Shown here piece after piece: positions 30,882-35,175 of a DNA stretch of 64,000 nt. The notes beneath the pieces were generated by a model. It had not been told where the DNA came from. It searched no databases and was given only the letters and a program-made list of their open reading frames with translations. Positions within the stretch are counted from its first letter, which is position 1. Every line of letters begins with the position of its first letter. The position numbers and the translations under genes were made by a program. Location of the stretch: positions 1,116,001 through 1,180,000 of the forward strand of contig NZ_JACVAJ010000001.1 in NCBI RefSeq assembly GCF_014851815.1. The letters are read 5' to 3'. This DNA is from Pseudoxanthomonas sp. PXM01. Lineage in GTDB: Bacteria > Pseudomonadota > Gammaproteobacteria > Xanthomonadales > Xanthomonadaceae.

Positions 30882-31237
30882 TGCGAAGGCACCGGCAGAC
30901 CCTGCTGCCGGAAGAAGCTGAGCTGGTCGAAATAACCGCGCTGGAACACGATCCGTCCCTCGCGCACGTGGAAGAACCCGCAGCCCCGCAGGCCGAGCGG
31001 ATCGCGCCATTCGAGGATGGCCCACTCGCCATCCTCGAACAGGTTTTCCAGGATGCATACCATCGTGGCGCGACCGAATTCGGTGCGGAACATGGCCGTG
31101 ATCGCCTCGCGGCCGTGCAGCGGATCGGTCACCACCTGGTGGTTGATCGCGTCTTCCGCGTACAGCGCCGCCAGACCATCGACATCCGCTGCGTTGAAGC
31201 GGCGGACCCATTCCCGCACGAGCTCGGACGGCGTCAT
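30869..31237 (-). CDS. SnoaL-like/NTF2-fold small protein coupled to asnB
   Basis: A 122-residue NTF2-like alpha+beta-barrel protein (TPSELVREWVRRFNAADVDGLAALYAEDA at the N-terminus, HVREGRIVFQRGYFDQ near the end). Its ATG (31237-31235) overlaps the asnB stop as ATGA, so it is expected to be translated with asparagine synthetase. SnoaL-type folds serve as small isomerases, hydrolases or ligand-binding modules; no catalytic assignment can be made. The coupling suggests a role tied to AsnB or simply shared expression. It converges with the acylase gene. Confidence 0.75.
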   Translation of the reverse strand: MTPSELVREWVRRFNAADVDGLAALYAEDAINHQVVTDPLHGREAITAMFRTEFGRATMVCILENLFEDGEWAILEWRDPLGLRGCGFFHVREGRIVFQRGYFDQLSFFRQQGLPVPSHYLG

Positions 31238-32937
31238 GTCGACACTGACGCGTGCGCGGCTGCATGCACGCCAGCGACGGCGCGGCCGGACGGGTCGGCC
31301 ATCTTCGCGAAGCTCGCATCCCACGCGATCGCCGCCGGCGACGAACAGGCGATCGACTTGCCGCCCGGCACCGTCTCCGCGCAGGCCTGTCCGGGATAGT
31401 GCTGCTCGAACAGCGTGCGGTAGTAGTACGCCTCCTTGGTCTGCGGCGGATTGACCGGGAAGCGCTTGTCGGCCGCCGCAAGTTCGCGATCGCTGACCTG
31501 CGCTTCGGCATGCGCCCTCAGTCCGTCGATCCAGCCATAGCCGACACCGTCACTGAACTGCTCCTTCTGCCGCCACAGGATCGACTCCGGCAGGTAGCCG
31601 TCGAACGCCTCGCGCAGCACACCCTTCTCCATGCGCTGCGCACCGGCGGAAGCCTTGTCGATCATCTTGTGCGCGGCATCCATCTTCATCGCCACTTCGA
31701 GGAATTCGACGTCGAGGAACGGCACGCGCGGCTCCACGCCCCAGGCCATCATCGACTTGTTGGCGCGCAGGCAGTCGTAGTTGTGCAGGGCGTCGAGCTT
31801 GCGCACCAGTTCCTCATGGAACTCGCGTGCGTTCGGTGCCTTGTGGAAGTACAGGTAGCCGCCGAAGATCTCGTCGCTGCCCTCGCCCGACAGCACCATC
31901 TTCACCCCCATCGCCTTGATGCGGCGCGCCAGCAGGTACATCGGCGTGGACGCGCGGATGGTGGTGACGTCATAGGTCTCGATGTGGCGGATGACCTCGG
32001 GAATCGCATCCAGGCCTTCCTGGAACGTGTAGGTGAACCCGTGATGCACCGTGCCCAGCGCCTTCGCCGCGATCTCGGCGGCGGCCAGGTCGGGGGAACC
32101 CTCCAGGCCGATGGCGAAGGAGTGCAGGCGCGGCCACCAGGCTTCGGTCTTGTCGTTGTCCTCGATGCGATGGCGTGCATAACGCGCGGCAACGGCGGCG
32201 ACCAGCGAAGAATCCAGCCCGCCCGACAGCAGCACGCCGTACGGCACGTCGGTCATCAACTGGCGATGCACGGCGCGCTCGAACGCATCGCGCAGTTCCT
32301 CCTTCGGGACCTGCATGCCTTCGACCGCGGCGTAGTCGCGCCAGGCCGTGTCGTAGTACTTCACCAACGCACGCGTGGCGGTGTCGTAATAGTGGCCCGG
32401 CGGAAACTGCGCCACGTCCGCGCAGATCGGCGACAGCGCCTTCATCTCCGACGCCACGCACAGACGGCCCTCGCGATCGTGGCCCCAGTACAGCGGGCAC
32501 ACCCCGATCGGATCGCGCGCGATCAACGCACGTCCGTTCGCCTTGTCCCACAGTGCGAACGCGAAGATGCCGTTGAGGCGGTTGAGGAATGAGGCGGGTT
32601 CGTCTTCGCGGTACAGCGCGTTGATCACTTCGCAGTCCGAGCCGGTCTGGAACGCATAGTCCTGCGCCAGTTCCGCCTTCAGCTCGCGATGGTTGTAGAT
32701 CTCGCCGTTCACGGCCAGCACCAGGTCGCCATCGGCCGAGCGCAGCGGCTGGGATCCGCCCGCCGGATCGACGATGGCGAGGCGCTCGTGCACCAGGATA
32801 GCGCCGTCGTCGTGGTACACGCCGCTCCAGTCCGGACCGCGATGGCGCTGCTTCTGCGAAAGCTCCAGCGACTGCCGTCGCAGGGCCTGGACGTCGTCGC
32901 CGGGTTGCAGCCCGAAGATGCCGAAGATGGAACACAT
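31234..32937 (-). CDS. asnB: Asparagine synthetase B (glutamine-hydrolysing)
   Basis: A 567-residue enzyme converting aspartate, glutamine and ATP to asparagine. The ATG at 32937 gives MCSIFGIFG, so Cys becomes the N-terminal glutaminase nucleophile after Met removal. The class II amidotransferase domain (about 1-190) has RLAIVDPAGGSQPL, NGEIYNHREL and TGSDCEV. The synthetase domain starts near 215 with the PP-loop LLSGGLDSSLVAAVAAR, followed by SGEGSDEIFGGY. The C-terminus VPGGKSIACSSPAAIAWD matches AsnB. An AGGAG site is present. Its 5' region (32982-33120) carries a predicted Asn-sensing attenuator, so transcription should rise when charged tRNA-Asn is scarce. Confidence 0.97.
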   Translation of the reverse strand: MCSIFGIFGLQPGDDVQALRRQSLELSQKQRHRGPDWSGVYHDDGAILVHERLAIVDPAGGSQPLRSADGDLVLAVNGEIYNHRELKAELAQDYAFQTGSDCEVINALYREDEPASFLNRLNGIFAFALWDKANGRALIARDPIGVCPLYWGHDREGRLCVASEMKALSPICADVAQFPPGHYYDTATRALVKYYDTAWRDYAAVEGMQVPKEELRDAFERAVHRQLMTDVPYGVLLSGGLDSSLVAAVAARYARHRIEDNDKTEAWWPRLHSFAIGLEGSPDLAAAEIAAKALGTVHHGFTYTFQEGLDAIPEVIRHIETYDVTTIRASTPMYLLARRIKAMGVKMVLSGEGSDEIFGGYLYFHKAPNAREFHEELVRKLDALHNYDCLRANKSMMAWGVEPRVPFLDVEFLEVAMKMDAAHKMIDKASAGAQRMEKGVLREAFDGYLPESILWRQKEQFSDGVGYGWIDGLRAHAEAQVSDRELAAADKRFPVNPPQTKEAYYYRTLFEQHYPGQACAETVPGGKSIACSSPAAIAWDASFAKMADPSGRAVAGVHAAAHASVST

Positions 32938-32981
32938 GGAAGGAAGCTCCTGGTGGGGTTCGGAAACAGGGACCGGAAACG

Positions 32982-33010
32982 AAAAAACCCGCATCTCGCG
33001 ATGCGGGTTT
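32982..33010 (-). terminator. Attenuator terminator (3:4 hairpin) in the asnB leader
   Basis: On the minus strand a 10-bp perfect stem (AAACCCGCAT, 33010-33001, with ATGCGGGTTT, 32994-32985) closes a 6-nt loop and runs into a six-T tract (32987-32982). It sits 45 bp before the asnB start codon and after a short Asn-rich reading frame, so it would stop transcription before asnB. Confidence 0.88.
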
Positions 33011-33113
33011 CTGGTATCCGGCAGGTCTTTCTTTGCCTAGTCGCAGAGCCGCATCGCCCGCGTCCCGTTGTTCGGACGCAGGTTATTGCGGTTGTTATTA
33101 ATGGCGGTGCGGC
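32985..33113 (-). promoter_or_regulatory. Predicted asnB attenuator RNA with alternative 1:2, 2:3 and 3:4 pairings
   Basis: Four segments are visible on the minus strand. Segment 1 is GCCGCACCGCC (33113-33103). Segment 2 is GGCGATGCGGC (33058-33048). Segment 3 contains CCGCATCGC (33006-32998). Segment 4 is the terminator's 3' arm (32994-32985). Segments 1 and 2 can pair over 11 positions with one mismatch. Segment 2 and segment 3 pair perfectly over 9 positions (antiterminator). Segments 3 and 4 form the terminator. All seven Asn codons lie between segments 1 and 2, and the leader stop follows segment 2. A ribosome stalled at Asn codons would cover segment 1 and favour 2:3 (read-through); one reaching the stop would cover segment 2 and favour 3:4 (termination). 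This is the layout of his/trp-type attenuators. Confidence 0.8.
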
Positions 33114-33120
33114 AGGGCAT
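33037..33120 (-). CDS. Asn-rich leader peptide of asnB
   Basis: A 27-codon frame from ATG 33120 to TAG 33039-33037. Seven of 27 residues are Asn, at positions 8, 9, 10, 12, 13, 17 and 18 (AINNNRNNLRPNNG), encoded by AAC and AAT. There is no obvious ribosome-binding site, but a plausible promoter would place the transcript start at or next to the ATG, so it may be a leaderless message. The role would be to sense the supply of charged tRNA-Asn rather than to make a functional peptide. Too short for automatic gene finders. The Asn clustering directly upstream of asnB and of a terminator is hard to explain by chance. Confidence 0.8.
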   Translation of the reverse strand: MPCRTAINNNRNNLRPNNGTRAMRLCD

Positions 33121-33127
33121 GGGGCGA

Positions 33128-33156
33128 CCGTAACCGCTCCCGCGGGGGCTTGGCAA
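33128..33156 (-). promoter_or_regulatory. Candidate promoter of the asnB leader
   Basis: Minus-strand TTGCCA (33156-33151, 5 of 6 to the -35 consensus), a 17-bp spacer, and a poor -10 TTACGG (33133-33128). The ATG of the leader lies 7 nt past the -10, so initiation would fall at about the A of ATG. It lies between the dapE stop and the leader, so asnB can be transcribed independently of dapE. Confidence 0.4.
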
Positions 33157-33196
33157 CTGTTTCATCCGAAAGTGAAGCGGCCCGGACCGACCGGCC

Positions 33197-34339
33197 TCAC
33201 GCCGGCCGGGTCGACAGCATCAGCCGCTCAAGCAACCTCTGGTACAGGCCGGGCAGCGCCTCCAGATCGGCCACGCGGATGTTCTCGTCGACCTTGTGGA
33301 TGCTGGCATTGACCGGTCCCACCTCGATGCATTCCGCGCCGAGCGGCGCGATGAATCGCGCATCGGACGTGCCGCCTGCCGTACTTTCCTCCGGTGGCGC
33401 GCCAGCGAATTCGCCCAGCACTGCGCGCGCGGTGGCACGCAGATGGCCTTCCGGCGTGTAGAACGGCTCACCGCCGCGCAGCCACTGGATGCTGTACTCC
33501 AGGCCATGCCTGCGGAAAATGCCTTCGATCTCCTGCTCCAGCCGTTCCGCCGTCCAGCTCGGATTGAAGCGCAGGTTGAACACCAGCTGCAGTTCGCCGG
33601 GGATGACGTTGCTCGCGCCGGTGCCGGCATTGATGTTGGAGATCTGCAGGCTGGTCGGCGGGAAAGTTTCGTAGCCTTCGTCCCACTGTCGCGCCGCCAG
33701 TTCGTCCAGCGCAGGCAGTGCCTTGTGGATGGGGTTGAGCGCCTTGTGCGGATAGGCCACGTGCCCTTGCACGCCGTGCACCTGCAACGTGCCGGTCAGC
33801 GTGCCGCGGCGGCCCACGCGCAACAGGTCACCCAACACATCCTTCGAGGAAGGCTCGCCGGTGATGCACCAGTCGATCTTCTGGCCACGCTCGCGGAACA
33901 GCTCGGCGACCTTCTTCACACCATCGTGTGCGGGACCTTCCTCGTCCGACGTGACCAGCAGGGCGACCGTGCCCGGATGATCGGGATGCGCGTCGACGAA
34001 GCGCTCCAGCGCGATCGTGCACGCGGCCACGCTGCACTTCATGTCGGCGGTGCCGCGCCCGTACAGCACGCCATCGCGCACAGTCGGCACGAAGGGATCG
34101 CTGGTCCACGCGGACAGCGGCCCCGGCGGCACCACGTCGGTATGGCCGAGCAGCACCAGCACCGGTGAGCCCGACCCGTGCGTTGCCCAGAGATTGTCGG
34201 TATCGCCGAAGCGCAGGTGTTCGCACTGGAACCCCCACTGCGCCAGCCGCGTCGCCAGCACCTGCTGGCAGCCTGCATCGTCCGGTGTCACCGAATGACG
34301 GCGGATCAGTTCGCTGGAAAGCTCGACGACATCGCTCAC
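33197..34339 (-). CDS. dapE: Succinyl-diaminopimelate desuccinylase
   Basis: A 380-residue M20-family zinc amidohydrolase that releases succinate from N-succinyl-LL-diaminopimelate in lysine and peptidoglycan precursor synthesis. Ligand motifs: [11 protein letters not shown] (near residue 68), YGRGTADMK with the bridging Asp, TSDEEGPA with the catalytic Glu pair, TGEPSS, and a late HKVDENI. Start GTG 34339 overlaps the upstream arsC-like stop as GTGA and is preceded by GGAG; longer starts would run through that gene. The arsC/yffB-dapE order matches E. coli. Confidence 0.95.
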
Positions 34340-34698
34340 GATTCGGCTCCGAACTGCTTCTTGAAGCCATTGTCGCTGAAGCCCTGTGAAAAGCCCGCCA
34401 CGCCACCGATCACCACGGGGCGGCGGATGAGCTGCGGATACTCCTTCAGCAACAACTTCCACTCCGCGTCGGAGCCCGGCGTCTTTCGGTTCTCCGGCAA
34501 CTGCCGCCACGTCGTCGACGACTTGTTGATCAGCGCGTCCCAGCCACCAGCCTTGTCTGCCCAGCCCTTCAGCGTCTCGGGTGCCTGCCGGTTGTCGCGG
34601 TAGTCGATGAACGTATAGGCCACGCCGAAGCGGTCCAGCCACTTCGTGGCCTTCTTGCAGGTGTCGCAGTTCTTCAAACCGTAGAGCGTCGCCGTCAT
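34336..34698 (-). CDS. ArsC/Spx-family protein (YffB-like)
   Basis: A 120-residue thioredoxin-fold protein ([22 protein letters not shown], with C11 and C14). The conserved RRPVV arginine near residue 92 is the usual anion-contacting residue. The family contains arsenate reductases and the uncharacterised YffB, which sits immediately before dapE in many gammaproteobacteria. That linkage argues for YffB rather than arsenic resistance, and no ars genes are nearby. Its stop overlaps the dapE GTG. Confidence 0.9.
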
Positions 34699-34770
34699 GA
34701 TCCGATCGTTCGCAAGGAGTCGCCAGCGATGTTACCGCAGGGCCACACCATCATTCGCGAAATGCGCCGG

Positions 34771-35175
34771 TCAGTGCGGACACATGACCGTAGTAGCGCC
34801 TCGCAGGCGACCGTGGTCGTCGAACTGGAGTCCGATGGCGCCAACGCGCTCCACACCATCGCGTTCCATGCACACCATCTTGCGACGCACTGCATCGGGA
34901 TTGTCGGCAGCACGCCGGACGGCATCGACGATGGACTCACGACTGGCGCCATCTGCACCTGCCGCCTGCACCGCCGCAATCAAGGGCACCATCTGGCGAC
35001 GGGAAATGTCCCAAGCCACCTGGTCGGGATAGCAGTCGGGATTGGACGAGGTCGCCGCATTCGACAAGACCTCGCCCTCGATGGCTCCTTGGTGCCGGCC
35101 GGCGACCCACCAAAGCGCGTTGGTTCCGATCAGCAGGAACAGCAACACATAGATGAGAACGTTGCGGGTCGACAT
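34771..35175 (-). CDS. Small membrane-anchored hypothetical protein
   Basis: A 134-residue protein with a good ribosome site (GAGGAAAG) before ATG 35175. Residues 5-25 (NVLIYVLLFLLIGTNALWWV) form one transmembrane segment or signal anchor, leaving a soluble domain of about 105 residues outside the cytoplasm with C48, C101 and C132. I do not recognise a family. It is inserted between dapD and the arsC-like gene, which are usually close neighbours, and its codon use looks less GC-biased than theirs, so it may be a lineage-specific addition. Confidence 0.65.
   Translation of the reverse strand: MSTRNVLIYVLLFLLIGTNALWWVAGRHQGAIEGEVLSNAATSSNPDCYPDQVAWDISRRQMVPLIAAVQAAGADGASRESIVDAVRRAADNPDAVRRKMVCMERDGVERVGAIGLQFDDHGRLRGATTVMCPH

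What the first reader, a model, noticed from the sequence alone, without database searches (positions are those of the whole stretch)
32982..33120. Asn-codon leader peptide and complete attenuator upstream of asnB
Seen: on the minus strand a 27-codon frame with seven Asn codons (positions 8, 9, 10, 12, 13, 17, 18), then a 10-bp terminator stem with six Ts, 45 bp before asnB. Segments 1 (33113-33103), 2 (33058-33048), 3 (33006-32998) and 4 (32994-32985) allow 1:2 (10 of 11 pairs), 2:3 (9 of 9) and 3:4 pairings. All Asn codons sit between segments 1 and 2, and the leader stop falls just after 2. Known: his, trp, thr, leu and ilv operons use this ribosome-stalling logic. I know of no described asparagine attenuator of this type in proteobacteria. 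Inference: asnB transcription rises when charged tRNA-Asn falls.
Basis: partly seen in the sequence, partly recalled or inferred. Interest (0 to 1): 0.95.

Follow-up and report, generated by a model that had tools for sequence, protein, structure and literature searches.

The report
Asparagine-sensing ribosome switch before asnB
In this bacterium and its relatives the asparagine-synthesis gene asnB is preceded by a tiny asparagine-rich reading frame and a terminator hairpin, which likely work as a switch predicted to let asnB be transcribed only when ribosomes stall for want of asparagine-loaded tRNA.

Summary
An Asn-rich leader precedes asnB in 77 of 80 relatives fetched, and in 41 of 44 sampled genomes of a second family and 3 of 3 of a third, where the terminator sequence differs. 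Most Asn positions keep the residue while swapping AAC/AAT. Co-transcriptional folding predicts that stalling at Asn codons permits an antiterminator and that reaching the stop codon removes it. The genome has AsnRS, no GatA over cut-off and no AsnA. Ribosome-mediated attenuation by Asn-tRNA is strongly supported by comparison, not shown by experiment.
The conserved upstream hairpin sits around the last Asn-Asn pair and overlaps segment 2 by one nucleotide in the window, so a classical 'protector' is not evident. New: conserved promoter-like boxes place the transcript start at or within a few nt of the leader AUG, predicting a leaderless mRNA (122 of 125 leaders). No Asn attenuator was found in Rfam or in ten paper searches. 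I rate it a new variant of leader-peptide attenuators: new amino acid, predicted leaderless, no evident protector.

The parts
33151..33156 (-). -35-like box TTGCCA of the predicted leader promoter
   Evidence: sequence; TTG box, 17-18 nt spacer (one 19) and a hexamer ending in T 5-9 nt before an in-frame ATG in 122 of 125 leaders (shuffled control 6.8%; the rule is lax)
33127..33132 (-). -10-like box TACGGT ending 6 nt before the leader ATG; transcription predicted to start at or next to the A of the AUG (leaderless)
   Evidence: the start site is inference
33037..33120 (-). leader peptide frame, 27 codons, 7 Asn, no clear Shine-Dalgarno
   Evidence: SD comparison
33091..33099 (-). Asn codons 8-10 (AAT AAC AAC)
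   Evidence: conservation
33082..33087 (-). Asn codons 12-13 (AAT AAC)
33057..33082 (-). conserved hairpin CCTGCGTCC-GAACAACG-GGACGCGGG, Asn codons 17-18 in its loop in the window (possible RNA polymerase pause hairpin)
33067..33072 (-). Asn codons 17-18 (AAC AAC), the last codons at which a stall is predicted to allow antitermination
33049..33057 (-). segment 2, GCGATGCGG, 5' arm of the antiterminator
32998..33006 (-). segment 3, CCGCATCGC, 3' arm of the antiterminator and 5' arm of the terminator
32982..33009 (-). intrinsic terminator (segments 3:4) with U tract
   Evidence: 99.6% of cells paired in 73 rows
32947..32951 (-). AGGAG Shine-Dalgarno of asnB
31234..32937 (-). asnB, glutamine-hydrolysing asparagine synthase B, the regulated gene
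   Evidence: NF006949 equivalog, 877.8 bits, cut-off 499

Best explanation
The region between dapE and asnB likely is a ribosome-mediated transcription attenuator that would sense charged tRNA-Asn and raise asnB transcription when asparagine is short. Shown by sequence: a 27-codon leader with seven Asn codons; a segment (2) just before the leader stop that can pair with the 5' arm (3) of an intrinsic terminator; asnB 45 nt downstream; and the same layout in relatives. Inferred: transcription starts at or within a few nt of the leader AUG, so the ribosome begins on a leaderless 5' end and follows RNA polymerase. With enough Asn-tRNA it runs to the stop codon and covers segment 2, so 3:4 forms and transcription ends. 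With little Asn-tRNA it stalls at an Asn codon, segment 2 stays free and pairs with 3, no terminator forms and asnB is made. The conserved hairpin around Asn codons 17-18 more likely pauses polymerase than protects segment 2.
For: Conservation: Asn leader plus terminator in 77 of 80 named asnB loci; at least 4 Asn per 12 codons in 41 of 44 f12 and 3 of 3 f2 genomes (terminator found by my rule in 39 and 2 of these). Residue rather than base is kept at most Asn columns: aligned codon 14 is Asn in 67 of 72, AAC 31 and AAT 36. AAT is 379 of 819 leader Asn codons against 99 of 814 in asnB genes. Terminator 99.6% paired with double changes at 4 of 10 pairs. Segment 2 fits its own terminator arm better than permuted arms: -21.5 against -17.9 +/- 0.33 kcal/mol, 122 sequences, 1000 permutations. 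Stall model: segment 3 pairs with segment 2 at 0.83 on average for 515 Asn codons of 77 family sequences (505 above 0.5) and 0.69 for 304 Asn codons of 45 others (284 above 0.5); 0.04 and 0.01 with the ribosome at the stop. The leader follows asnB, not the neighbour: dapE lies within 2 kb upstream in 45 of 77 loci, and 31 of the other 32 still carry the leader. Charging logic: asnS 631 bits, no gatA over cut-off, no asnA.
Against: No expression data. Two named loci (L079, L083) lack it (a third, L045, is cut off). So do AsnBs of 63-67% identity in f1 and f12 (G091, G237, G067, G230) and one of 79% (G245); G249, G110 and L013 have only 3 Asn per 12 codons. Arg (18% and 10% in the two sets) and Ala (16% and 21%) are also frequent beside Asn (22% and 21%), and Arg is kept at codon 13 in 71 of 73 rows; I ascribe that to GC-rich frames and pairing, untested. 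For 2:3 the number of pairs changed on both sides is no higher than in shuffles (311 of 500 reach it). Within f12 own arms are hardly better than other f12 arms (-19.9 against -19.5). Codons other than Asn also permit 2:3 (0.56 and 0.53), so the model shows a competence limit, not Asn specificity by itself. In relatives with a longer tail (such as L066) the stop lies about 14 nt beyond segment 2, so masking there depends on timing.
Confidence: 0.9

Rival explanations
1. The frame codes a small functional Asn-rich peptide, and the terminator merely ends its own transcript; asnB has another promoter or is read through constitutively.
For: The frame is conserved as a frame and has promoter-like boxes of its own.
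Against: N-termini, length and C-terminus change between groups while Asn clusters remain; the conserved C-terminal RPMR-type stretch coincides with segment 2. Segment 2 matches its own terminator arm. The leader stays next to asnB where the neighbour differs.
Confidence: 0.04
2. A T-box or other riboswitch binds uncharged tRNA-Asn or asparagine directly.
For: T-box control of asparagine genes exists in Clostridium (Saad 2012 and 2013, seen only as references in PMC4206432).
Against: No Rfam match over cut-off in the window region or in 12 relatives; apart from the short hairpin and the terminator, what is conserved is translated Asn codons with synonymous swaps.
Confidence: 0.02
3. A plain terminator of dapE next to a chance Asn-rich ORF.
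For: dapE ends at 33197, upstream on the same strand.
Against: Resampling control (17 of 2790 with at least 4 Asn) and conservation, including 31 loci without dapE within 2 kb.
Confidence: 0.01
4. Same sensor, but the step controlled is asnB translation or Rho access rather than intrinsic termination.
For: No transcription was measured.
Against: A strong hairpin with a U tract follows the leader in the 77 named loci (only 4 T in L082 and L084); asnB's AGGAG lies outside the pairings described.
Confidence: 0.03

Closest known systems
Leader-peptide (ribosome-mediated) attenuators of proteobacterial trp, his, thr, leu, ilv, phe operons (recalled; general account in the start of the abstract of PMC1183508, listing, and a passage of PMC2659441)
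   Same: Short leader with runs of codons for the product amino acid, antiterminator/terminator switch, leader stop near segment 2, biosynthetic gene downstream.
   Different: The amino acid is Asn; no conserved segment-1 protector; predicted leaderless start.
Sinorhizobium meliloti trpL attenuator (rnTrpL/peTrpL; passages of PMC7298713)
   Same: There the transcript starts with the leader ATG and a small leaderless mRNA is released; here this is predicted.
   Different: Trp, 14-aa leader, Alphaproteobacteria. A trans role of the peptide or RNA is reported there, untested here.
T-box control of asparagine genes in Firmicutes/Clostridium (recalled; references seen in PMC4206432)
   Same: Would respond to Asn-tRNA charging, terminator read-out.
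   Different: T-boxes bind tRNA directly (recalled); here a translated Asn-rich frame is conserved and no T-box is found.
ilvC leader in the same genome (L097)
   Same: Leader with a VLVLVLI run and a terminator; ilvC starts 45 nt after the end of the match of the model built on the asn leaders (42.5 bits).
   Different: Branched-chain codons; gene is ilvC.

Membership tests
ribosome-mediated leader-peptide attenuators | short leader ORF enriched in codons of the amino acid made by the regulated gene | tested here: met
   7 of 27 codons Asn; leader in 77 of 80 named loci
ribosome-mediated leader-peptide attenuators | intrinsic terminator between leader and first gene | tested here: met
ribosome-mediated leader-peptide attenuators | alternative antiterminator excluding the terminator | tested here: met
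   85.8% of 2:3 cells paired in 73 rows; own-arm fit beats permutation; but no excess in the number of pairs changed on both sides
ribosome-mediated leader-peptide attenuators | stall at regulatory codons frees segment 2; ribosome at the stop covers it | tested here: met
   folding model only:
ribosome-mediated leader-peptide attenuators | read-through responds to charged tRNA in cells | not testable with these tools
   needs reporters or Term-seq
classical four-segment (trp/his) form | 1:2 protector hairpin that blocks 2:3 in untranslated RNA | tested here: not met
T-box riboswitch | match to the T-box covariance model | tested here: not met
   no such match among E-values up to 5 in 31000-35000
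leaderless attenuator (S. meliloti trpL type) | transcription starts at the leader AUG | tested here: inconclusive
   promoter geometry in 122 of 125 leaders and weak SD matches; no start-site mapping

The most novel reading that the evidence does not exclude
An asparagine-specific attenuator built on a leaderless mRNA with only three working segments, in which termination requires a translating ribosome: untranslated RNA defaults to antitermination, so asnB is switched on by low Asn-tRNA and also by any failure of leaderless initiation. The terminated, roughly 139-nt leaderless RNA and its Asn-rich peptide would be by-products that could act in trans.
Probability: 0.3. Interest if true: 0.78.

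Novelty: new variant of a known kind. Interest (0 to 1): 0.66.

Why it matters
It would add asparagine to the amino acids sensed by leader-peptide attenuation, explain how asnB, the one AsnB of its kind found in this genome (single match at E 1e-100 or better), is controlled in the many bacteria that share the leader, and give a naturally varied set (125 leaders) for testing how much of the classical four-segment design is needed. The predicted leaderless start ties attenuation to an initiation mode that bypasses Shine-Dalgarno recognition. The claim is cheap to test with reporters.

Tried and rejected
The conserved hairpin as protector: it overlaps 2:3 by 1 nt in the window and 3 of 14 pairs in the guide sequence, and the equilibrium model still forms 2:3 in most of the family. 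My first no-ribosome figures counted pairing of segment 3 with more than segment 2; restricts it and is what I cite. Rfam membership: none. E. coli asnB: 256 nt upstream read in one strain, no Asn leader. L178, an AsnB from outside the order, has none; its sister L179 was not analysed because my start-finder failed. Leader versus AsnRS route: asnS over cut-off in 60 of 65 genomes and gatA over cut-off in 0 of 65, with and without leader alike, so it fits but does not discriminate. Weak model hits across the order were not counted as attenuators of asnB: of 40 hit regions fetched, 37 hold asnB, one of them (L152) without a leader, and 3 (L139, L141, L153) do not. The terminator rule missed four loci (L078, L080, L082, L084); the relaxed rule found them (one mismatch in L078, only 4 T in L082 and L084). 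Rows left out of alignment A1: L052 (masked), L081, L082, L084, L087 (too divergent by eye). Among the 93 upstream regions, L270 (G208) has only 95 nt upstream.

Full report
Observation. The minus strand of 33120-32982 reads as described: a 27-codon frame with Asn at codons 8, 9, 10, 12, 13, 17 and 18, then a 10-bp terminator with six Ts, then asnB from 32937. The gene is asparagine synthase B by NCBIfam (NF006949, 877.8 bits against a cut-off of 499). The nearest named loci are Pseudoxanthomonas, with AsnB 93-95% identical, so the window is probably from that genus (inference). In 2790 first-order Markov resamplings of 93 upstream regions, at least 4 Asn within 12 codons of a short ORF occurred 17 times and at least 5 occurred 3 times.

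Conservation in the family. Of these 80, 77 carry an Asn-rich leader followed by a terminator (L052 is partly masked, L013 has only 3 Asn). L045 has 6 bp upstream and cannot tell; L079 and L083 lack the leader. By the 12-codon rule 77 of 81 upstream regions (80 loci plus window) reach at least 4 Asn. dapE lies within 2 kb upstream on the same strand in 45 of the 77 loci with 1000 bp or more upstream; of the 32 without it, 31 carry the leader, while L079 has dapE and no leader. So the leader goes with asnB.

Beyond the family. A covariance model built on 73 rows hit 183 of 397 genomes of the order at E 0.001 or better, weak hits included; the model can also hit an ilv-type leader. AsnB was found in 169 of 250 order genomes at E 1e-150 or better. 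I fetched the upstream DNA of 93 of the 169, chosen mainly outside the window's family or where the model was weak. At least 4 Asn per 12 codons: family f12 41 of 44, f2 3 of 3, f1 (nine genomes, most with a weak or no model hit) 5 of 9, f7 1 of 13 (one of them with 95 nt only), f9 0 of 21, f4, f5 and f10 0 of 1 each. A terminator was also found by my rule in 39 of the 41, 2 of the 3, 5 of the 5 and 1 of the 1. The f12 terminators (for example AGGCCCGCC...GGCGGGCCT) differ in sequence from the family's ACCCGCATC type. Cases without the leader in f1 and f12 include AsnBs of only 63-67% identity (G091, G237, G067, G230), but also G245 at 79%; G249 and G110 have 3 Asn. At class level AsnB relatives at E 1e-100 or better occurred in 6 of 369 genomes; two lie outside the order, and the one examined has no leader. 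E. coli asnB (one strain read) has none.

Codons. Asn is 21.8% of leader residues in 77 family leaders and 20.6% in 48 others; Arg (18.2%, 10.3%) and Ala (15.6%, 20.8%) are also common. Asn columns mostly keep the residue and swap the third base: aligned codon 14 Asn in 67 of 72 (AAC 31, AAT 36), codon 19 in 66 of 73 (21, 45), codon 20 in 63 of 73 (12, 51); codon 12 is nearly all AAC (56 and 4). AAT makes up 379 of 819 leader Asn codons (122 leaders) but 99 of 814 in the asnB genes. This may reflect slower decoding or loop structure; I did not separate the two.

RNA switch. In 73 rows the terminator has 99.6% of cells paired, with double changes at 4 of 10 pairs. The upstream hairpin has 70.7% (outer) and 87.3% (inner) with double changes at 5 of 9 pairs. 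The antiterminator has 85.8% and double changes at 3 of 14 pairs, a number that 311 of 500 shuffles also reach, although cells with double changes (15 against 6.1) exceed all shuffles. Across 122 sequences segment 2 binds its own terminator arm at -21.5 kcal/mol against -17.9 +/- 0.33 when arms are permuted (minimum of 1000: -19.1); f12 arms are interchangeable within f12 (-19.9 own, -19.5 others) but less so with other families (-14.2).

Stall model. I masked 12 nt beyond the A-site codon and folded what had emerged up to the terminator loop, counting pairs of segment 3 with the stretch from the last Asn pair to 15 nt past the stop (searches used looser counts). In 77 family sequences the mean is 0.83 at 515 Asn codons (505 above 0.5), 0.56 at other codons and 0.04 at the stop. 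In 45 sequences of the second set it is 0.69 at 304 Asn codons (284 above 0.5), 0.53 and 0.01. With the ribosome at the stop no sequence exceeds 0.3. In the window the value is about 7/9 through codon 17, 6/9 at 18, 2/9 at 19 and 0 from codon 22 on: the last Asn codon marks the limit. In several f12 leaders a final single Asn lies beyond that limit. The model gives competence, not kinetics.

What differs from the textbook. The conserved hairpin instead encloses the last Asn-Asn codons (mean z -2.4; below -1.5 in 62% of 77), though both codons are mostly unpaired in only 24 of 77; it overlaps segment 2 by one nucleotide in the window. Without a ribosome segment 3 pairs with the segment-2 region at 0.70 on average in the family (62 of 77 above 0.5; 68 of 77 if the RNA starts at the AUG) and 0.45 in the second set (24 of 45; 33 of 45 from the AUG). 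I therefore read it as a three-segment device with a possible pause hairpin, less surely outside the family; that kinetics make the hairpin a protector is open.

Leaderless start. A TTG box, a 17-18 nt spacer (one 19) and a hexamer ending in T lie 5-9 nt (mostly 6-7) before an in-frame ATG in 122 of 125 leaders (82 of 82 f1, 37 of 39 f12, 3 of 3 f2, 0 of 1 f7) against 6.8% after shuffling. In the window these are TTGCCA 33156-33151 and TACGGT 33132-33127. The best AGGAGG match before the leader is 3 of 6 or less in 96 of 120, against 5 of 6 in 63 of 80 for asnB. The stricter promoter scan found none. S. meliloti trpL is a precedent for a transcript starting at the leader ATG (passages of PMC7298713).

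Physiology. The genome has asnS (631 bits), no gatA over its cut-off and no asnA, so Asn-tRNA should depend on free asparagine. Other Asn_synthase-domain matches exist (8 stretches, two of them asnB itself; two other genes read, their family not tested because one search failed); whether any makes free asparagine is unknown, and the model shows no leader at them.

Literature. Ten searches listed no report of an asparagine leader-peptide attenuator, judged by title and abstract start. Passage searches in main texts found no 'asparagine' in PMC2965389, PMC1183508, PMC1262725 and PMC2659441, and only unrelated uses in PMC5009743, PMC5864092 and PMC11282234. The key survey of proteobacterial attenuators (Vitreschak 2004) was seen only as a reference, and subscription papers are largely missing, so absence from print is not shown.

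Verdict. A real, conserved, asparagine-specific ribosome-mediated attenuator of asnB, by comparative evidence; in mechanism close to the known kind, new in amino acid, predicted leaderless start and lack of an evident protector.

Noticed in passing
L097 (G000:C4:1781195-1781364): Second attenuator in the same genome: leader MLQRHTPTMTDPTAPAAASVLVLVLITSPTTAGRTGV and terminator before ilvC; by eye its upstream boxes also suggest a start close to the leader ATG.
   Followed up: partly
Asn codons of 122 leaders: AAT is used in 46% of leader Asn codons but 12% of those in asnB genes, although a single tRNA-Asn probably reads both (recalled).
   Followed up: partly
L266 (G082, family f7): Isolated leader MFAIYNTINTTNNRLLRSAGSF with terminator before an AsnB 62% identical to the window's; the 12 other f7 regions fetched (one only 95 nt long) show none. 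Convergence, transfer or remnant is open.
   Followed up: partly
L083: A contig labelled Tardiphaga carries an asnB whose last 40 or so upstream nt resemble Stenotrophomonas by eye but which follows another coding frame and lacks the leader: chimeric assembly or loss of the attenuator.
   Followed up: no
window 33197-34336, minus strand: dapE (TIGR01246) lies directly upstream of the predicted leader promoter.
   Followed up: partly
L001 and L002 (G000:C4:1039869, G000:C5:760003): Further Asn_synthase-domain proteins of 718 and 633 aa, role untested, without the leader.
   Followed up: no
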